64,000 bases of DNA. It comes from Natrialba magadii ATCC 43099 (GTDB taxonomy: Archaea > Halobacteriota > Halobacteria > Halobacteriales > Natrialbaceae). Under the pieces are notes generated by a model. That model saw nothing but the letters and a program-made list of their open reading frames with translations, was not told the DNA's origin and searched no databases. The DNA is taken from the NCBI RefSeq assembly GCF_000025625.1, contig NC_013922.1, forward strand, positions 558,001 through 622,000, given 5' to 3'. Numbering within the stretch: the stretch's first letter is position 1; each line of letters begins with the position of its first letter. A program made the position numbers and the translations under genes. Below, piece by piece: positions 12,784 through 48,528 of the stretch.

Positions 12784-14190
12784 CTATTCGTCTCCACGAG
12801 CCGCTTCGAACATGTCGAGCGCCGCCTCGCGGCGCGCCGCGTGATCGACGATCGGGTCCGGATACTCGGGTGCAACGCTCGCCCGCTCATCGGGTTCGAG
12901 AGCAACCCACTCGTGGATCGTCTCGGCGGGAACGTCCGCGAGTTCCGGGACGTAGGTTCGAATGTACTCGGCGTCGGGGTCGTGGCGCTCTCCCTGGGTC
13001 ATCGGGTTGAAGATCCGGAAGTACGGTTGTGCGTCGGTACCGGTTCCGGACGCCCACTGCCAGCCGCCGACGTCGCTTGCGGTGTCGTGATCCGCGAGCT
13101 TCTCGCGGAACCAGGCGTACCCCTCGCGCCAGTCGAGCATGAGGTCCTTCGTCAGGAACGACGCGACGATCATGCGCAGGCGATTGTGCATGAACGCCTC
13201 GGCTCGAAGCTGACGCATGCCAGCGTCGACGATCGGATAGCCCGTTTTCCCGTCCTTCCAGGCCTGGAGTGCAGCAGCATCGGTCTGCCACTGAATCGGG
13301 TTCTCGTAGGATCGGTAGTTCGCCGTGACGGTGTGTGGATTCGTGTCGAGTACGTGGGCGTAGAACGCTCGCCAGGCGAGTTGGGATTCGAACTCCTCGC
13401 AGGAGTCGGCCGCTGCCTCGTCCGGAGCCTCCGATTTCGCACGGTCGAGCGCCTCGTACACCGTGCGGATGCCGATGGTTCCCCACTTGAGGTGCGGTGA
13501 GAGACCGGAAGTGGCGTCGGCCGCAGGGTCGTCTCGCTGGTCTGCGTACCGATAGATAGGGTCAGCACAGAACGTCTCGAGCCGACGGCGTGCTGCCTCC
13601 ATCCCGGCGTCGGGAATCGTCGCCTCTGGGTCGTCGAATCCGAGGGCTTCCTGAGACGGAAGCGAGTCCCCGGAGACTGACGCCAGTTGCTCGCCGTCCG
13701 GTGCCGAGACGGGAGACTCCTTCTCGCGATCACGCCACTTCTTCCAGAAGTACGAGTAAACGGCGTACGTCTCGCCTTGCTGGGTGGTAATCGAGCCTGG
13801 TTCGAACAGAAGCGCATCGTCGACGGACGTGGCCTCGATTCCGGCATCAGTCAGCGCCTCACGGACCTCCTCGTCTCGCTTGCTCGCAAGCCCGGAGTAG
13901 TCTCGATTCCACGAGACGCGCTCTGCGCCGTGCTCACGGGCGATCCGCGGCAGTTCCTCTCGAGGGTCACCCGTGGCAACCACGAGATCGCCGCCGCGCT
14001 CGCGATACCAGGCCCGGAGTTCCGAGAGCGACTCGAGCATGAACGCCACCCTGGGCGGCGAGGCGAACTCGAGGACCGCCGGGTCGAAAATGAATGCGGG
14101 TATCACCGAGCCCGTTTCCGCCGCGGCGGAAAGTGAGTGGTTGTCCGTGGCTCGAAGATCTCGGCGGTGCCAATGAACGTGAACGCTCAT
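12784..14190 (-). CDS. phr: Deoxyribodipyrimidine photolyase (cryptochrome/photolyase family)
   Basis: Light-driven repair of cyclobutane pyrimidine dimers, 468 residues, the usual length. The N-terminal alpha/beta antenna domain starts VHWHRRDLRATDNH; the FAD domain has LSPHLKWGTIG, ESQLAWRAFYAHVL, the MRQLRAEAFMHNRLRM helix and DVGGWQWASGTGTDA followed by FRIFNP, all class I signatures. Expected in an organism exposed to sunlight. It ends 57 bases from the stop of the convergent TraB-like gene. Substrate class (CPD rather than 6-4 product) is inferred from similarity only. Confidence 0.95.
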   Translation of the reverse strand: MSVHVHWHRRDLRATDNHSLSAAAETGSVIPAFIFDPAVLEFASPPRVAFMLESLSELRAWYRERGGDLVVATGDPREELPRIAREHGAERVSWNRDYSGLASKRDEEVREALTDAGIEATSVDDALLFEPGSITTQQGETYAVYSYFWKKWRDREKESPVSAPDGEQLASVSGDSLPSQEALGFDDPEATIPDAGMEAARRRLETFCADPIYRYADQRDDPAADATSGLSPHLKWGTIGIRTVYEALDRAKSEAPDEAAADSCEEFESQLAWRAFYAHVLDTNPHTVTANYRSYENPIQWQTDAAALQAWKDGKTGYPIVDAGMRQLRAEAFMHNRLRMIVASFLTKDLMLDWREGYAWFREKLADHDTASDVGGWQWASGTGTDAQPYFRIFNPMTQGERHDPDAEYIRTYVPELADVPAETIHEWVALEPDERASVAPEYPDPIVDHAARREAALDMFEAARGDE

Positions 14191-36195: not shown

Positions 36196-36612
36196 CTATC
36201 GTCGGGTGATCACAGCATACCCGACACGCCAGCCGACGAGGGCGACCAGTCCGAAACCGGTGATGACAAGGCCGAACGGCCAGGCAGCCGAGCCATCGAG
36301 AAACGGCGATACACGGAGTGACAGTCCGATATTCGCCGCTGCGATCCAGGTCAGTGCCGTCAGTCGCGCCGTTCCGATCACCGACGCCGTACTGTTACGA
36401 GTGTACAACCCCGACAACGCCGTCATCGCGACCCAGCCGAGCAGGAACGGGGCCAACGCCTCGAGCAGGGCGGGAATGCCGTCGACCAGCCCGTGTGAGT
36501 ACTGACCGTACAGGATCAACGCCGTCAACAGAGCAATGTCGACGGTACCGACCAGCAGCGTTTCGCGATCGAAGACCGATGTGCGCTCATCCGCCTGCAC
36601 TGCAGTGTCCAT
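36196..36612 (-). CDS. DUF3054 membrane protein
   Basis: A 138-residue four-helix membrane protein (helices about 18-38, 48-68, 78-98 and 108-130) with the DUF3054 pattern AALLEALAPFLLGWVAMTALSG in the second helix. Widely conserved in haloarchaea and some bacteria without a defined function. It begins with a short acidic N-terminus MDTAVQADERTSVFDRE. Confidence 0.85.
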   Translation of the reverse strand: MDTAVQADERTSVFDRETLLVGTVDIALLTALILYGQYSHGLVDGIPALLEALAPFLLGWVAMTALSGLYTRNSTASVIGTARLTALTWIAAANIGLSLRVSPFLDGSAAWPFGLVITGFGLVALVGWRVGYAVITRR

Positions 36613-36992: not shown

Positions 36993-37619
36993 TTACCGTG
37001 CTCTTGATCCACTACTGCCGTCCTCACGACGCAAGTACCCGATCGTCCCTGGATCGAAGTAATAGCGCGAGCCGCAGTTTCCACAGTCCGCAGACAGGGC
37101 CTGGCCGTGCTGGTGGAGTTTCCAGAGTTTCGTTTGATTGCGTTCGATATCGAGTGTCACCGACTGGTCACAGTTCGGCACGGTACACGGGAACCGGACG
37201 TACCAGTTCGGCACCGAGAGCGCGCCGAGCGGGGCGAGTTCGCTCCGGAGTCGACACAGCAGATTGAAAATCGTCACCGAGGGGTTCTCGCGGTCGATCA
37301 CGACGCCTTCGACATCGCTGATGAAGCCACCACGGCGACACTCGTCATCGTACAGCGGCAACACGGGGATTCCCTTCGCGAGGGCGTAACCGATCTCCTG
37401 GTTGATCCACTGGCTGGTCGTCGCTCGCTTGGTGAGCACCGCGACGACCACGTCGCTGTTCGCCAATCGGCCCTCGAGACGCGCTCGTGAGCCGCCGGAT
37501 TCGACCTCCTCGAGCGCGATGTGGACACCAAAGGGGAAGTTCTTCACCGTCGAGAACAGATCCTGGACGAGCTCGAGATCACCTGGCGCGTGCGAGACGA
37601 AGACCTGTTCTCCGGACAT
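36993..37619 (-). CDS. TIR-domain protein with C-terminal zinc ribbon
   Basis: A 208-residue protein. Residues 5-130 show a TIR fold: EQVFVSHAPGDLELVQDL at strand A/helix A, SDVVVAVLTKRATTSQW with the W71 of the conserved TIR tryptophan-containing motif and candidate catalytic Glu75 (WINQEIGYALAKG), then PVLPLYDDE. Bacterial TIR domains are NAD hydrolases in immune systems, with the Glu essential. The C-terminal 60 residues carry C145, C150, C179 and C182, a zinc-binding or nucleic-acid-like ribbon. I prefer the ATG at 37619; the 66 residues upstream in frame are basic and non-conserved. No partner (Argonaute, Thoeris-type ThsA or cyclase) is adjacent. It is a plausible defence gene but may be a non-defence TIR protein. 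Confidence 0.8.
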   Translation of the reverse strand: MSGEQVFVSHAPGDLELVQDLFSTVKNFPFGVHIALEEVESGGSRARLEGRLANSDVVVAVLTKRATTSQWINQEIGYALAKGIPVLPLYDDECRRGGFISDVEGVVIDRENPSVTIFNLLCRLRSELAPLGALSVPNWYVRFPCTVPNCDQSVTLDIERNQTKLWKLHQHGQALSADCGNCGSRYYFDPGTIGYLRREDGSSGSRAR

Positions 37620-37701
37620 ACGTTCTCGTCGAGATGATGGTTCGTGAGCTATTATGAAGGTACCTACTCTCGACAGGAGCACACGGCGGCCGCTGCAGAC
37701 G

Positions 37702-38154
37702 CTATGCCTGCGAAATCGTCTCGAGTACCCGCTGTGAGAATTCGACCTGCGAGAGGTCGTCCGAGAGCCGCTCGAACCACGCAGCTTCGACGTGCCAGCT
37801 TCCACGACGAACTCCATCAGTCGTCAGCGACGTCACCTCGAGTCGTCCCGGCTGCCACTCGCGCTCCTCGGCGACCGCCAGCAGTGTCCGGAGTACTGCA
37901 CCGACCTCGTTGCTCGTCACACCCGGTGCCTCCGAGACGGTTTCGTACTCGAGTACGATCGGAGCCAGTTGCTCGTCGCCGGTGGTCTCGCTCTCGTGTC
38001 GGTTTCCGTCCACGTTCGCGTCTCCGTCCCCATCCTCATCCTCAGCCTCATCCCCATCTCTGTCCCCCTGTTCGAGTTCGAACGCCGTCACGTAGATGCC
38101 GTGGCTCATGAGCCGATTCTCGAGTGCGACAGCCACGGGCCGCTCGTCGCTCAT
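37702..38154 (-). CDS. Conserved haloarchaeal hypothetical protein with acidic insert
   Basis: A 150-residue soluble protein. Two conserved-looking halves (PVAVALENRLMSHGIYVTAFELE; IVLEYETVSEAPGVTSNEVGA and the WHVEAAWFERLSDDL end) are joined by an Asp/Glu/Gly-rich insert (residues 30-60) derived from GAC/GAG-rich DNA. No family assigned. It is divergent from nothing obvious, with about 80 bases to the TIR gene downstream and 110 to tpiA upstream. Confidence 0.6.
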   Translation of the reverse strand: MSDERPVAVALENRLMSHGIYVTAFELEQGDRDGDEAEDEDGDGDANVDGNRHESETTGDEQLAPIVLEYETVSEAPGVTSNEVGAVLRTLLAVAEEREWQPGRLEVTSLTTDGVRRGSWHVEAAWFERLSDDLSQVEFSQRVLETISQA

Positions 38155-38265: not shown

Positions 38266-38910
38266 TCAGAGCGGGTCGACCAGATCCTCAAGTGCAGCCG
38301 TCGGATCGTCAGCCTTCGCGACGCCGCTTGCGAGCAGGACGCCCTCGGAGCCGAGGTCGCTGGCAGCGACCACGTCGTCGCCCGTGCTGATACCCGCACC
38401 GCAGAGCACGGACACATCGTTATCGACGCTCTCGGCTGCATCCACGGCGTCCTCGACGATATCCGGATCAGCCTGGCTGACCGGCGTTCCCGTCCCGATC
38501 AGTGCTGGCGGTTCGACGGCGACGGCATCCGGTCCGAGCGCCGCGGCCGCGCCGATCTGTGCTGGGTTGTTCGCACAGACGACCGTCTCGAGTCCGGCGC
38601 GCTCCGCTGCCTGCACCGAGCCGTCGATATCGGCGAGTTTCAGGCGCTGCTCGGAGTGGTTGATCAGGGTGCCGACTGCACCTGCGTTGGCGACGGACTC
38701 CGCAAGCGTGTGTCCGGTGTTGCTCCCGTGTTCGATCGGATCGACGTGCTGTGCCCAGGTCTCTGCGCCGGTGTCGGCGACGCGTTCGAGGTGTGCTGCC
38801 TGCGGCGCGACGGCGAGGCGAGCGTCGGTAGTCTCGTTAACATCGCGGACGGCCTCCGCGACGGCGACTGGATCACACGGATACGTCTTCAGGTTGACGA
38901 GGACGAACAT
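38266..38910 (-). CDS. tpiA: Triose-phosphate isomerase
   Basis: Interconverts dihydroxyacetone phosphate and glyceraldehyde 3-phosphate in glycolysis/gluconeogenesis. The 214-residue archaeal short form has NLKTYP near 7 (Asn-Lys), INHSEQRL near 92 with the His, and the catalytic Glu in [12 protein letters not shown] near 130-145, followed by the phosphate-binding ALLCGAGIS-like segment. Cytoplasmic and probably a homotetramer, as is usual for archaea. The gap downstream to the hypothetical gene is 111 bases. Confidence 0.96.
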
Positions 38911-39098: not shown

Positions 39099-39650
39099 TC
39101 AGTCCTTGCGCTTGACGACGTCACCGAGCGTGTAACTGCCCGACGAGGAGCCGCCGGACCACTCGGAGTCGTCGCCCGAACTTCCCTCTGCGCTCAGGTC
39201 GATCTCGAGGAAGCGCTCGAGTTTCGACTGGACGCGATCGCTCGGCAGGGTATCGCCGCGTTCGATCTTTCGGATGAGACTCGACTTCTCGTTGAGCTCG
39301 TTGGCCAGATCGGACTGGCTGAGGCCCTTGTTTTCGCGTGCGGACCGGACGAGGTCGTCGTAATCGGGTGCGAGTTCGTCCATATCGTCGAACATATCGT
39401 TCCGACGTTGGGTACTCGAACTCGACGAAGACGAGCTACTTGCCCCACTCGAGCCGGCCGATTGGCCGCTCGAACTCGACGATGAGGACGAGGAACCGGT
39501 CGAGTACTTGGTGGACGTGCTCGAACTCGACGGCTGTCTGACTTCGGTGCCGAAGTCGGTACAGTTCGAACACACGTCTAACTTCGCGCCCTCGACCTTG
39601 ATGGTCTTCGGAGACGACGTCTCGGCGCCACACATCTCGCACTGAACCAT
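39099..39650 (-). CDS. Multiprotein bridging factor aMBF1
   Basis: A 183-residue transcription cofactor of the aMBF1/MBF1 family. It has an N-terminal zinc ribbon (CEMCGAETSSPKTI...CSNC), a Ser-rich low-complexity linker of about 50 residues (roughly 45-95) and a C-terminal XRE-type helix-turn-helix (DLANELNEKSSLIRKIERGDTLPS) with an Asp/Ser/Gly tail. In archaea it links transcription or translation factors; its role is not fully defined. The ATG at 39650 is chosen (MVQCEMCG). The expanded Ser linker is longer than I would expect. Confidence 0.9.
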   Translation of the reverse strand: MVQCEMCGAETSSPKTIKVEGAKLDVCSNCTDFGTEVRQPSSSSTSTKYSTGSSSSSSSSSGQSAGSSGASSSSSSSSSTQRRNDMFDDMDELAPDYDDLVRSARENKGLSQSDLANELNEKSSLIRKIERGDTLPSDRVQSKLERFLEIDLSAEGSSGDDSEWSGGSSSGSYTLGDVVKRKD

Positions 39651-39731
39651 GCACGAATCTATATCGCGGCGAGTCATAAACCATGCGGCGCGTTGCTGTT
39701 CCGAAGACAGTCCCACACCAGCCTGAGACCG

Positions 39732-44061: not shown

Positions 44062-44132
44062 CGGCGGTGTCTATCGCCGGGGAGGCTAAAACGGTTCTGA
44101 GACCGGGCGACTGAGACAGCTTTCTGGAAGAG

Positions 44133-45191
44133 CTATCGCTCGAGTGCGTGTAACGTGCCGTCGAAACTACCGACGACAACCAGTTCGTCACTAATCGCTG
44201 GCGTCGACCCGACCTCGTCGTCGGTCTGGTATGACCAGCGTTCGCTTCCGTCAGCCGCGTCGACTGCGTATAGCGAGTTGTCAGCGGATCCGACGTAGAC
44301 GATTCCGTCGGCGGACGAGGGCGAGAAGACGAGTCCATCTGTGTCGAACGTCCACTCCTCGGTTCCGTCGCTGGCATCGACGGCATATAGTTTGCCATCG
44401 CCACTGCCGACGTACACCGTCCCGTCAGCGACAGTGGGATTTGAATTGGTACCCCCGTTCGTCTCGAACGACCACAATTCTTCACCGTGGGTATCGACCG
44501 CGGAGAGGACGCCGTCGGAATTCGCGATATAGATCGTTCCATTGACGACGGTCGGATCAGAGACAATTGAGCTCTCGGTTTCGAACGCCCACTCTTCAGT
44601 CCCATCTGCAGCGTTGAGGGCGTATAGCGAGTTATCACGACTGCCGGCGTAGACTGTCCCGTCGTCGACTGCGGGAGAGGTCTGGACGCTGTCTCCCGTT
44701 TCGAACGCCCACTCTTCCGTTCCGTCTCGGGAATCAAGTGCGTACACGAACGAGTCGTTACAACCGACGTATACGGTCTCTGCTGCGAGTGCTGGTGAGG
44801 AGAGAACGGGTAACTGTGGAATATTTGGACGGAATGACCAGTTCTTGGTTCCGTCCAGATGAAACCCATAGACTGTGTCCAACACGCCGGTCTGACCAGT
44901 ACTTCCAATGTACAAACCGTCGTCGCTTACCGCCGGTGTCACCCGGACCACGTCGTCCATTTGTGGTCCAGTGTTCCATACTCTTTCGCCAGTATTTAAC
45001 TCAAATACGTGGACACCACCCCCTTGGCTTCCGACATATATTCGTTCATCCGAAACTATTGGGAAAATCCTGATATCGGATCCTAATTGGCTTGTCCATC
45101 GTATGCGACCGCTATTTATTAACCCAGTACACCCAGATAAAGTGATAGTTATAATGGCCGATGATAAGTAGGTCCTGCGATCATATTTCAT
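44133..45191 (-). CDS. Exported PQQ-type beta-propeller lipoprotein
   Basis: A 352-residue protein with a signal peptide and lipobox (ITITLSGCTGLI) and seven or so near-identical PQQ-like blades. The signature is repeated W-A/S-F-E/D-T (for example EWAFETGDS twice, EEWTFDTDG) with VDDGTVYAGS, VVNGTIYIAN and VADGTVYVGS between blades. The high blade identity suggests recent internal duplication. It is probably an outer-surface scaffold. The 5' end and upstream region are AT-rich, marking the edge of an islet shared with the next gene. Confidence 0.85.
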   Translation of the reverse strand: MKYDRRTYLSSAIITITLSGCTGLINSGRIRWTSQLGSDIRIFPIVSDERIYVGSQGGGVHVFELNTGERVWNTGPQMDDVVRVTPAVSDDGLYIGSTGQTGVLDTVYGFHLDGTKNWSFRPNIPQLPVLSSPALAAETVYVGCNDSFVYALDSRDGTEEWAFETGDSVQTSPAVDDGTVYAGSRDNSLYALNAADGTEEWAFETESSIVSDPTVVNGTIYIANSDGVLSAVDTHGEELWSFETNGGTNSNPTVADGTVYVGSGDGKLYAVDASDGTEEWTFDTDGLVFSPSSADGIVYVGSADNSLYAVDAADGSERWSYQTDDEVGSTPAISDELVVVGSFDGTLHALER

Positions 45192-45280
45192 TGTATAATT
45201 TTATGGGCGTGGCAAATAAATATCTTATGATTCGGCCATAAGGTAAAGTATGCTACCTATGTTCCATTTGTGTGTGGGTC

Positions 45281-46768
45281 CTAAACATCAACTGATTGAT
45301 AAGCACCAGTCCGATCAATCAGGTCAGTTGTGGACCATTTTGCAATAGTTGACGAATGCTCACAAGGGCATGCTTCATCATAATACTCTAAGTGCCCCCA
45401 CTCAAATCGTGCGCGGGTCCTAACTTCTCTATAATATCCATGTCCAGCATGGTTATCAACGGTGATCCTAGCAGAAGCTACATCATCTGGGTGGGCTGGG
45501 AAATAATTACTTCCTGTATTATCACTGGCGTAACTATCGAGCGGGATATCCCAATACCATTCTTGCTCGTCACCAGACCCTTCTTCTGAAACATCTGGTC
45601 CAGAGCTACTTCCAGACCCGTCTGCAATCGCATAATCAATTACTGTGCTCCCGATTGAACCCCATTTACCCCCAACTGTTCCAGCAATATCTAACACAGT
45701 ACCTAGGAAATTTGGATCCGGATCCTCACTAGAATCCTTTGGTCTGGGATGGCGAAATTCTAACTCATTAAGTTCGGAGTCATTATCATCAGAATGACCG
45801 GCCCAGAACTCAACATTCGTCTGATATGGAACACCTTCATCTTGGTCGCAAGATTCAACATAAGGATCCGGTGTGTCTTCGAAATATAATTGCATATACC
45901 AGCGTTTAGTATTGGCAAAAGCGATTTCATGCTCTGATGTTAGTAAGTCCCCATCAGAATCATATCGACGATCTGCAAGGGTTGCATACTGACATTCCCA
46001 TTCCATTGTACGACTACTTTCATCGCACCGTGAGGGATATGCATGTAAGTCAGATGACTCAGGTGAGAGGTTCCGCATGACAACTCCCGCTTCTGAGTCT
46101 GCATCTGTTACCCTAGAACCTGAATCAATGGAGCGATTATACTCCTTTTCCGATTCCATATCCCTTGTCGGAATGTTCCGGATACTATTACTAGTTGGAA
46201 CCCCTGTATTTGGGACAGTAATTTCAGAAAATCCTGTAACAATTTCACGACGTGTTTCTGGTTTTAGCGCGCTTTCGACGTCATCTGCGGAAACCCCTTC
46301 TGATACAGGGTTCAAAGAAAATGCTAATGGTCCGTACTCTGCAGAGGGCCGTCTTAGCGTACCCGTGATACGATTATTGATGATGTCAATCCTTCCTTTT
46401 AATGGAAGTTCCACATCATCATGAGTAACAGTATATTGTGGATCAGTCTTTGAGAACGTGTATACATCAACTGAATCATTGTTGCTGTCACTAGATAGCC
46501 GGTTGTCAGAGCCTACCTCAATCGTGAACCCTGCAGCGGAGAGAGTCCCCTTAATCCCGTCAGAGTTAATATATAGAGTTGCGGTTGCATCATCCTGCAC
46601 TTTGTCTGTAACTGGGTCATACGTTTTCCCGACAAACTGAAGGGAACCATCAGCGGCAACAGTTCCGATGCCAGTGACCGTTGCGGAGCTACTAGCCGCA
46701 AAAACGCTCCCAAGAACGCTTCGTCTACTGAAATTAGAGGTTTTATCCTCGTTGTCAGGCTGTTTCAT
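45281..46768 (-). CDS. Large Tat-exported protein of unknown family, AT-rich
   Basis: A 495-residue protein. It begins MKQPDNEDKTSNFSRRS with a twin-arginine signal (FSRRSVLGSVFAASS) ahead of a hydrophobic stretch; there is no lipobox, so it would be released or cell-wall-bound. The body has beta-rich segments (LQFVGKTYDPVT, YINSDGIKGTLS, ELPLKGRIDI), Ser/Asp-rich linkers and Cys pairs near residue 250 (SRCDESS, WECQY) and at the C-terminus (ACPCEH). No family recognised. Codon use is AT-rich and Asn/Ser/Lys-rich, unlike neighbours. The ATG at 46768 is preferred over a TTG at 46774. Confidence 0.7.
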   Translation of the reverse strand: MKQPDNEDKTSNFSRRSVLGSVFAASSSATVTGIGTVAADGSLQFVGKTYDPVTDKVQDDATATLYINSDGIKGTLSAAGFTIEVGSDNRLSSDSNNDSVDVYTFSKTDPQYTVTHDDVELPLKGRIDIINNRITGTLRRPSAEYGPLAFSLNPVSEGVSADDVESALKPETRREIVTGFSEITVPNTGVPTSNSIRNIPTRDMESEKEYNRSIDSGSRVTDADSEAGVVMRNLSPESSDLHAYPSRCDESSRTMEWECQYATLADRRYDSDGDLLTSEHEIAFANTKRWYMQLYFEDTPDPYVESCDQDEGVPYQTNVEFWAGHSDDNDSELNELEFRHPRPKDSSEDPDPNFLGTVLDIAGTVGGKWGSIGSTVIDYAIADGSGSSSGPDVSEEGSGDEQEWYWDIPLDSYASDNTGSNYFPAHPDDVASARITVDNHAGHGYYREVRTRARFEWGHLEYYDEACPCEHSSTIAKWSTTDLIDRTGAYQSVDV

Positions 46769-46793
46769 AGCCAACTGATAATTCGACCAAGAG

Positions 46794-46800
46794 TTATTAA
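46794..46800 (-). promoter_or_regulatory. TATA-like box of the 495-residue protein
   Basis: Minus-strand TTAATAA, about 26-32 bases upstream of the ATG at 46768, within an AT-rich promoter region. Confidence 0.4.
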
Positions 46801-46968
46801 AACTTTTTGATAGTTCTAGATACTAATATAACCTCCGAAGATTATAGTATATTTTCATGGTACAATATCATAGACGATCTATAAAGAAGCAAAATGCCAT
46901 GTATATTTTCTAACGGGCAGAAAGGTTCAAAGAGGACCTTTAAACCAGTCGCGCACCCACACCGACGT

Positions 46969-48528
46969 ATGCCATCAGGGGACCTCGCAGCGCGGGTCAC
47001 AGACGTGTTGTCGGTCGACGCCGACGGCTACCGCGAGCACGCCGAGGCCGACGCCGAAGTCATCAAAGACGCCATCGAGGACGGCGTCTTCGACAATCCA
47101 CAGGCCATCGTCGGACTCGAGTACGAGTTCTACGCGATCAAGGACGACGACGCCACGCTGCGGCGGGTGCCGCGGCGGCTACTCGAGTTGATCGGTTTCG
47201 AGAAGGAACTCGGGCTGCACAACGCGGAGATGACGACGAGTCCGCAGCCGCTGAACGGCCACGGGCTGGCGGCCCAGGAGTCGGAGGTCAAAGCGCGTCT
47301 GCAGACGGCGCTGAACGTGACCCAGTCTGAACGCATGCGACTGGTCAGCGACGGACTCTGGACGATTCCCCCGGAGGGCGAGGACGCGACGACGTACCTC
47401 ACGGACAGCGTCGAGCGCACCGTGGAGGACGAGGCTGCGGAGGGCGGCGAGCGATCCGTTCGCGTCGCAACGAACATGAGCGACTCGGCGCGCTATCATG
47501 CGATGGCCAACACGGATAGAGCCGACGTGGCCGGTATGCGAGTCGAGGCACCGAACGTCTCCTTGCAGGCCGATACGGTCATGCCCGAGAGTCTGATCAC
47601 GTCGATTCAGCCCCACTATCAGGTGGCCCACGCCCCTGATCTGCCGACGTACTTCAACTACGCCGTCCGGACCGCTGCCCCGCTGCTCGCGCTCGGGGTG
47701 AACTCGCCGTTCTTCCCCGCCGACCTCTACGACGACGAGGCGACGGCCGAGGACGTGCTCGCGGATGGGTGGATGGAACACCGGATCAGCGTCTTCGAAA
47801 CCGTGCTGAACGACCCGAACACGGGCGAGGGGAAGGTTCGATTCCCGCAGGATCTCGACTCCGTCGAGGAGGCCGTCGACCGCATTGCCACCGACGATAC
47901 GATGGTTCCGATGCCCGTCGAGGCGGGCGAGCGCTTCGACGACCAGTTTCCCCACTTCCGTCGCAAGCACGGCACCTACTGGCGGTGGGTTCGGCCCGTG
48001 TTCGGCGGGCCGACGCGCTCGGCCGCGAACGCGCGCATCGAGTTTCGGCCGATTCCCGCCCAGCCAACCGTCCGGGACTCCGTCTCGTTCCTCGCGGCGT
48101 TCGCCGGCCTCCTCGAGAGTCTGGTTCGGCTCGAGCACCCTGTCCACGAACTCGACTGGCAGACTGCCCGCGAGAACTTCTACGCGGCCATGCGCGACGG
48201 GCTCGAGGCGGATATCGTCTGGATCACCAACGACGGCAAGGAGACGACGGACACGCTGGCGCTCTACGAGGATCTGCTGGCCCACGCCGAGGACGGGCTC
48301 ACGAGTCGTGGTCTGACCGAGGAGCAGGCCGCGAAGTACCTCTACCCGCTGCGCCGGCGTGTGCGCCAGCAGTTGACGCCGGGCCGATGGAAGCGCGAAC
48401 AGGTCCGTTCGGCAGTCGACGACGGCGCGGACCTGGAAACGGCGATCGAGACCATGCAACGAGCGTACGTTCGCCGCCAGCGCGAGACGCTGCTGGAAGG
48501 GAGTTTCGCTGACTGGATCGGCGACTGA
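46969..48528 (+). CDS. Glutamate-cysteine-ligase family (GCS2-like) protein
   Basis: A 519-residue ATP-grasp/GS-superfamily enzyme. The N-terminal metal/ATP site is GLEYEFYAIKDDD at 49-61, then HNAEMTTSPQPLNG near 85-98, and ARIEFRPIPAQPT near 365-375 corresponds to the conserved C-terminal Arg-Glu strand. It is longer than haloarchaeal GshA (about 360 residues) and diverges, so the amine donor or acceptor may differ; amide-bond formation on glutamate is the likely chemistry. The ATG at 46969 is chosen. It lies upstream of an aldo/keto reductase on the same strand, with an 82-base gap. Confidence 0.75.
   Translation: MPSGDLAARVTDVLSVDADGYREHAEADAEVIKDAIEDGVFDNPQAIVGLEYEFYAIKDDDATLRRVPRRLLELIGFEKELGLHNAEMTTSPQPLNGHGLAAQESEVKARLQTALNVTQSERMRLVSDGLWTIPPEGEDATTYLTDSVERTVEDEAAEGGERSVRVATNMSDSARYHAMANTDRADVAGMRVEAPNVSLQADTVMPESLITSIQPHYQVAHAPDLPTYFNYAVRTAAPLLALGVNSPFFPADLYDDEATAEDVLADGWMEHRISVFETVLNDPNTGEGKVRFPQDLDSVEEAVDRIATDDTMVPMPVEAGERFDDQFPHFRRKHGTYWRWVRPVFGGPTRSAANARIEFRPIPAQPTVRDSVSFLAAFAGLLESLVRLEHPVHELDWQTARENFYAAMRDGLEADIVWITNDGKETTDTLALYEDLLAHAEDGLTSRGLTEEQAAKYLYPLRRRVRQQLTPGRWKREQVRSAVDDGADLETAIETMQRAYVRRQRETLLEGSFADWIGD

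What the first reader, a model, noticed from the sequence alone, without database searches (positions are those of the whole stretch)
36993..37619. TIR-domain protein with a C-terminal zinc ribbon
A 208-residue TIR protein keeps the candidate catalytic Glu75 in WINQE and ends in a four-cysteine ribbon (C145, C150, C179, C182). TIR domains in prokaryotes are commonly NAD-depleting immune effectors. A ribbon fused to TIR could sense nucleic acid or a partner. No known defence partner is adjacent, so it may be a stand-alone or previously undescribed TIR arrangement.
Basis: partly seen in the sequence, partly recalled or inferred. Interest (0 to 1): 0.6.

Follow-up and report, generated by a model that had tools for sequence, protein, structure and literature searches.

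The report
Core archaeal TIR–zinc-ribbon protein
This is a real 208-residue TIR protein with a zinc-ribbon-like tail, belonging to an apparently undescribed, old archaeal family that sits as a single-copy, vertically kept gene among housekeeping genes rather than in defence islands, so it looks like a resident NAD- or nucleotide-cleaving sensor, although its activity is untested.

Summary
Window 36993-37619 (-) encodes a 208-residue TIR protein (Pfam TIR_2, 42.6 bits against a cut-off of 28) with Glu75 in WINQE and a four-Cys tail. Relatives of the same architecture occur in haloarchaea (63 of 74 genomes of the host's family), in two mcrA-positive methanogen families (33 of 33 good genomes of one) and in a few Nitrososphaerota, Thermoplasmata and Dehalococcoidia records. 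Glu75 and all four Cys are identical in all 37 aligned sequences from these groups. In Natrialbaceae the gene lies just downstream of tpiA in 47 of 49 loci, is under purifying selection (dN/dS about 0.08, like tpiA), and where absent the locus is otherwise intact. No viral relative was found. The same genome keeps separate, recognisable defence TIRs in a CBASS/SLATT island. In three Nitrososphaerota the gene follows two four-CBS-domain genes. Best reading: an old, resident TIR glycohydrolase whose ribbon is a regulatory or targeting module, acting in NAD or nucleotide stress signalling rather than as a mobile defence module. Catalysis, zinc binding and trigger are inferred. Novelty: a new variant of a known kind.

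The parts
36993..37619 (-). TIR-ribbon gene, 208 aa, ATG start at 37619, stop included
   Evidence: translation; start supported by N-terminal conservation; family alignment
37227..37613 (-). TIR domain, residues 3-131
   Evidence: Pfam TIR_2 residues 6-94; AF2 model; structural matches
37395..37397 (-). Glu75 codon, predicted catalytic glutamate, in WINQE
   Evidence: identical in 37 of 37 sequences; equivalence to the TIR catalytic Glu by motif and by TIR-survey numbering (PMC7075850)
37023..37205 (-). C-terminal zinc-ribbon-like domain, residues 139-199
   Evidence: strand-knuckle-strand-helix-strand-knuckle-strand model, pLDDT 83.6; Cys and P190/T192 conservation
37170..37187 (-). first knuckle, C145 to C150 (Cx4C here, Cx2C in methanogen and Nitrososphaerota relatives)
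37074..37085 (-). second knuckle, C179 to C182 (Cx2C)
37651..37658 (-). TATA-like element TTCATAAT, 32 to 39 bases upstream of the ATG; TTAATAAT-like at the same place in most relatives shown; possible promoter of its own
   Evidence: upstream sequences; by inspection only, no statistics
37702..38154 (-). conserved 150-aa hypothetical gene directly upstream, no Pfam, NCBIfam or PADLOC family
38266..38910 (-). tpiA, upstream anchor of the conserved locus
   Evidence: NCBIfam; beside the TIR gene in 47 of 49 loci
36196..36612 (-). DUF3054 gene downstream, other side of the conserved locus
   Evidence: Pfam; present in 40 of 49 loci

Best explanation
The gene encodes an old, stand-alone archaeal TIR enzyme with a dedicated C-terminal zinc-ribbon-like module. 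SHOWN: TIR fold (predicted), invariant Glu75, invariant four Cys, one copy of this architecture in the host genome, a conserved housekeeping locus in Natrialbaceae, purifying selection, clean loss in some lineages, wide presence in methanogens. INFERRED: Glu75 breaks an N-glycosidic bond, most likely releasing nicotinamide from NAD+ and giving ADP-ribose or a cyclic isomer. The ribbon binds zinc and holds, targets or oligomerises the TIR domain so that activity is off until a signal arrives. The role is in the cell's own NAD or adenine-nucleotide stress signalling, possibly with shut-down when a threshold is passed, rather than as a horizontally traded phage-defence cassette.
For: TIR_2 in 27 of 27 diverse members. 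E75 and four Cys in 37 of 37. TIR part aligns best to TIR structures including NADases: SPARTA 8spo Z 13.0, AbTir 7uxu 12.1, SARM1 7anw 12.0. One gene of this family per genome, in 63 of 74 host-family genomes and 68 of 292 class genomes. A methanogen family has it in 33 of 33 good genomes. Next to tpiA in 47 of 49 loci; tpiA-side locus kept and the gene missing in 12 Natrialbaceae genomes. dN/dS 0.081 against tpiA 0.071 and hisC 0.186. No viral relatives. The ribbon search finds the TIR-ribbon gene and almost nothing else. In three Nitrososphaerota two four-CBS-domain genes lie directly upstream on the same strand; CBS domains commonly bind adenine nucleotides (own knowledge). The same genome has separate defence TIRs in a recognisable CBASS/SLATT island.
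Against: No enzyme activity was measured. The characterised archaeal TIRs TcpA (327 aa) and TcpO (341 aa) (PMC10937652) are longer than this protein. W71 of the haloarchaeal WxxxE is replaced in all 12 methanogen sequences, so product or activity may differ there. Several independent losses show it is not essential. 9 of 38 loci have a TIR neighbour order that disagrees with housekeeping genes, so some exchange within the family is likely. The CBS link is seen in only one lineage.
Confidence: 0.5

Rival explanations
1. A resident antiviral effector: the TIR domain depletes NAD+ when the ribbon senses infection, but the gene is inherited vertically instead of being traded in islands.
For: TIR models of the ThsB type give weak but real hits (PADLOC PDLC00436 E 2.8e-6; Pfam ThsB_TIR above cut-off). 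Repeated clean losses are typical of costly immune genes. Thoeris TIR systems sense phage capsids (PMC12578639, title and abstract).
Against: Housekeeping neighbourhood, tpiA-like constraint, near-universal presence in one methanogen family, no ThsA-like or other known defence partner beside it, no viral relatives.
Confidence: 0.25
2. An RNA-acting enzyme: the ribbon binds RNA and the TIR domain removes nicotinamide from NAD-capped transcripts.
For: NAD-RNA exists in Haloferax volcanii (PMC10663502). Several prokaryotic TIRs including archaeal TcpA do this reaction (PMC10937652). In haloarchaeal members the ribbon is much less acidic than the TIR part (mean net charge -0.75 against -7.8). A Nudix zinc-ribbon model is among weak Pfam hits of two members.
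Against: The ribbon is not basic on average in any group. Archaeal TcpO lacks this activity although it is a NADase. No RNA-related gene neighbour is conserved.
Confidence: 0.1
3. A nucleoside or nucleotide N-glycosidase of the deoxyribosyltransferase/DNPH1 type that cleans the nucleotide pool.
For: Structural scores tie within 1 Z: 7o62 deoxyribosyltransferase Z 12.6, 8qhr DNPH1 Z 12.0. The best PDB sequence hit is 7m5h, labelled nucleoside 2-deoxyribosyltransferase (E 0.0022). Housekeeping distribution.
Against: Pfam Nuc_deoxyrib_tr is below its cut-off (22.2 against 28.8) while TIR_2 is above. The N-terminal VSHAxxxD and WxxxE motifs are TIR-type.
Confidence: 0.1
4. A scaffold TIR without catalysis that assembles a signalling complex.
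For: Most TIR domains are thought to act in complex formation and fewer in NAD degradation (PMC7075850, abstract). W71 is lost in methanogens.
Against: Glu75 is invariant across five deep groups, which a pure scaffold would not require.
Confidence: 0.05

Closest known systems
Thoeris ThsB (TIR that makes cyclic ADP-ribose isomers for ThsA)
   Same: Small TIR protein; Pfam ThsB_TIR above cut-off; conserved catalytic Glu.
   Different: No ThsA beside it, C-terminal ribbon added, housekeeping locus, mostly vertical inheritance.
Archaeal TIR proteins TcpA (Theionarchaea) and TcpO (Methanobrevibacter olleyae), PMC10937652
   Same: Archaeal TIR proteins; NADase shown for both, NAD-RNA de-nicotinamidation for TcpA.
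   Different: 327 and 341 aa, against 187-220 aa here; sequences not compared here.
SPARTA TIR-APAZ
   Same: Best structural match of the TIR part (8spo_E Z 13.0; tied with several others).
   Different: No APAZ domain, no short Argonaute partner.
CBASS TIR-SAVED in the same genome (L212:7118-8338)
   Same: TIR domain, same cell.
   Different: It lies with a cyclase and an E1-E2-JAB gene in an island; the finding has no SAVED domain and no such neighbours.
Nucleoside 2-deoxyribosyltransferase / DNPH1
   Same: Related fold with tied Z.
   Different: Below the Pfam cut-off; TIR-type motifs.

Membership tests
TIR domain (Pfam TIR_2) | curated HMM cut-off reached | tested here: met
   42.6 bits against 28; all 27 diverse members match at E up to 1
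TIR domain (Pfam TIR_2) | TIR fold | tested here: met
   AF2 pLDDT 83.9; Z 11.5-13 to TIR structures over 114-150 residues
TIR NADase | catalytic Glu | tested here: met
   E75 in 37 of 37 sequences
TIR NADase | NAD+ cleavage | not testable with these tools
   needs an assay
zinc ribbon | two Cys knuckles in a small beta-rich domain | tested here: met
   four invariant Cys; model
zinc ribbon | fold match to a solved ribbon | tested here: inconclusive
   no confident Foldseek hit, VIA Z at most 3.3; weak Pfam ribbon hits in some members
zinc ribbon | bound zinc | not testable with these tools
   needs ICP-MS or a structure
Thoeris | ThsA effector gene adjacent | tested here: not met
   neighbours are tpiA, MBF1, DUF3054 and other housekeeping genes
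Thoeris | ThsB-type TIR domain | tested here: met
   Pfam ThsB_TIR 29.4 bits against 21.2; PADLOC ThsB hit E 2.8e-6 over residues 4-81
SPARTA | APAZ domain and short Argonaute | tested here: not met
   no such domain in the 208 aa and no PADLOC hit for it
CBASS TIR-SAVED | SAVED domain and cyclase neighbour | tested here: not met
   TIR part only, PDLC02012 E 0.05 over residues 5-75; neighbours housekeeping
defence-island gene | defence or mobile genes around it | tested here: not met
   eight window neighbours scanned without a defence system; MBF1 hits mainly through its HTH
nucleoside 2-deoxyribosyltransferase | curated HMM cut-off reached | tested here: not met
   22.2 bits against 28.8

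The most novel reading that the evidence does not exclude
TIR-ribbon proteins are a resident, pre-immune TIR signalling enzyme of archaea: a core NAD- or adenine-nucleotide-cleaving stress switch, coupled in Nitrososphaerota to CBS-domain nucleotide sensors, of the kind from which defence TIRs could have been recruited.
Probability: 0.3. Interest if true: 0.75.

Novelty: new variant of a known kind. Interest (0 to 1): 0.52.

Why it matters
Prokaryotic TIR proteins are studied almost wholly as phage-defence effectors carried in islands. A TIR family that is single-copy, strongly constrained and present in every good genome of a methanogen family would show a resident role for TIR chemistry, in organisms where knock-outs may be feasible. 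It also gives one testable set of positions: Glu75 and four Cys.

Tried and rejected
The longer ORF to 37817 was rejected: the conserved N-terminus starts at 37619. A defence partner beside the gene: none found. The convergent J-domain gene as an obligate partner: present in 34 of 49 loci but absent from the six Natrialba loci that share the window's arrangement, and not found in the host genome. It tends to be lost with the TIR gene (Fisher p 0.002, not corrected for ancestry) but is kept in two genomes without it. A conserved partner in methanogens: none across genera. The ribbon fused to other domains: the ribbon-only search returned TIR-ribbon genes plus a few weak fragments. A known solved fold for the ribbon: no confident match, which does not show it is new. 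Viral carriers: none; one Natrinema copy lies on a 987-kb replicon that carries the same tpiA locus. Literature: no paper found on a TIR-zinc-ribbon family; the library lacks most subscription journals.

Full report
Observation. The minus-strand ORF 36993-37619 gives the stated 208 residues. Relatives fix the start at 37619. Pfam places residues 6-94 in TIR_2 above the curated cut-off.

Structure. AlphaFold2 with 34 family sequences gives mean pLDDT 83.9, pTM 0.81. VIA-align puts the TIR part on TIR structures (8spo_E SPARTA Z 13.0; AbTir 7uxu 12.1; SARM1 7anw 12.0), but deoxyribosyltransferase 7o62 (12.6) and DNPH1 8qhr (12.0) are tied with them. Sequence breaks the tie towards TIR: TIR_2 is above its cut-off, Nuc_deoxyrib_tr below. 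The C-terminal 78 residues modelled alone give a confident small beta domain with the Cys pairs at strand ends and no confident PDB match.

Family. One contig-collection scan gave 49 haloarchaeal loci at 54% identity or more (L031-L079) and distant full-length relatives in three Nitrososphaerota, a Thermoplasmata and a Dehalococcoidia record. In f33, 33 of 33 good genomes have a match, 31 of them covering TIR and ribbon in one frame by my count. In f19, 48 of 86 good genomes do, but some of these matches cover the TIR part only. In the host family 63 of 74 sampled genomes have it. Across 37 sequences E75, D14 and the four Cys are identical. Haloarchaea, methanogens and Nitrososphaerota each form one side of a well-supported branch. 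The Thermoplasmata and Dehalococcoidia rows have very long branches, so deeper order is unsure.

Neighbourhood. In Natrialbaceae the order is ligA-hisC-AK6-AIP synthase-MBF1-tpiA-hypothetical-TIR-DUF3054, with tpiA in 47 of 49 loci. GenBank's own annotation of Natrinema thermotolerans agrees and names the TIR and J-domain genes. In 12 Natrialbaceae genomes without the gene, the tpiA side of the locus is kept, and in 11 of them DUF3054 still lies downstream; so the gene was lost several times. A TATA-like element lies 32-39 bases upstream of the ATG, with similar sequences in most relatives shown (by inspection).

Selection. Among seven Natrialba sequences the median dN/dS is 0.081 for TIR, 0.071 for tpiA, 0.186 for hisC and 0.219 for the hypothetical neighbour (simple Nei-Gojobori counts on GC-rich genes). 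TIR distances follow housekeeping distances only moderately (r 0.55 with tpiA, against about 0.8 among housekeeping genes), and 29 of 38 loci agree on nearest neighbours. So descent is mostly vertical with some exchange or rate change inside the family.

Contrast inside the genome. Two other TIR_2 hits lie at G000:C1 345-350 kb. That stretch holds a CBASS cyclase, an E1-E2-JAB gene and TIR-SAVED, and further on a DUF4231/SLATT-like gene followed by a ThsB-like TIR. The organism therefore keeps ordinary defence TIRs elsewhere, in a different setting.

Mechanism. Shown: predicted fold, invariant Glu and Cys, distribution, synteny, constraint. Inferred: NAD+ (or a related nucleotide) is the substrate, from established TIR chemistry; zinc binding; and regulation by the ribbon. 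In L080, L081 and L082 two proteins of the four-CBS-domain type lie directly upstream on the same strand, and an M50 protease lies convergently downstream; Pfam confirmed the CBS domains in four of the upstream proteins and CBS plus M50 in the L080 protease. Because CBS domains commonly bind adenine nucleotides (own knowledge), I read this as a hint towards nucleotide-state signalling; it rests on one lineage. In methanogens W71 is replaced in all 12 sequences, so product chemistry may differ.

Verdict.

Noticed in passing
G000:C1 341.4-350.5 kb (L212:3426-12512): Defence island in the host genome: CBASS-type cyclase, E1-E2-JAB fusion, TIR-SAVED effector, then a DUF4231/SLATT-like gene followed by a ThsB-like TIR; an integrase-like ORF at L212:667-1872 and a resolvase-like ORF at 13302-14051, named by eye, flank it.
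   Followed up: partly
L080, L081, L082 around 8-12.6 kb: Nitrososphaerota TIR-ribbon genes directly follow two CBS-domain genes and face an M50 protease gene; possible functional link.
   Followed up: partly
L040, L044, L060, L077 and others, about 10.6-11.4 kb; absent from the window: A convergent gene for a J-domain protein with several CxxC pairs lies beside the TIR gene in 34 of 49 loci, including lineages where the rest of the locus has changed, but not in the window or its close Natrialba relatives.
   Followed up: partly
window 37702-38154: Conserved 150-aa gene without any Pfam, NCBIfam or PADLOC family, found in 39 of 49 loci between tpiA and the TIR gene; evolves faster than tpiA and the TIR gene (dN/dS 0.22).
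   Followed up: partly
window 44100-47000: G+C falls to 0.44 in an otherwise 0.60-0.66 stretch; the two ORFs there (44133-45191 and 45281-46774) have almost no match in the 49 related loci, so this looks like a recent insertion.
   Followed up: no
window 39099-39716: The MBF1 homologue carries a long poly-Ser linker between its zinc knuckle and HTH.
   Followed up: no
G579, G664 (methanogen genus g138): TIR-ribbon gene split into two pieces in different frames, perhaps pseudogenes or sequencing errors.
   Followed up: no
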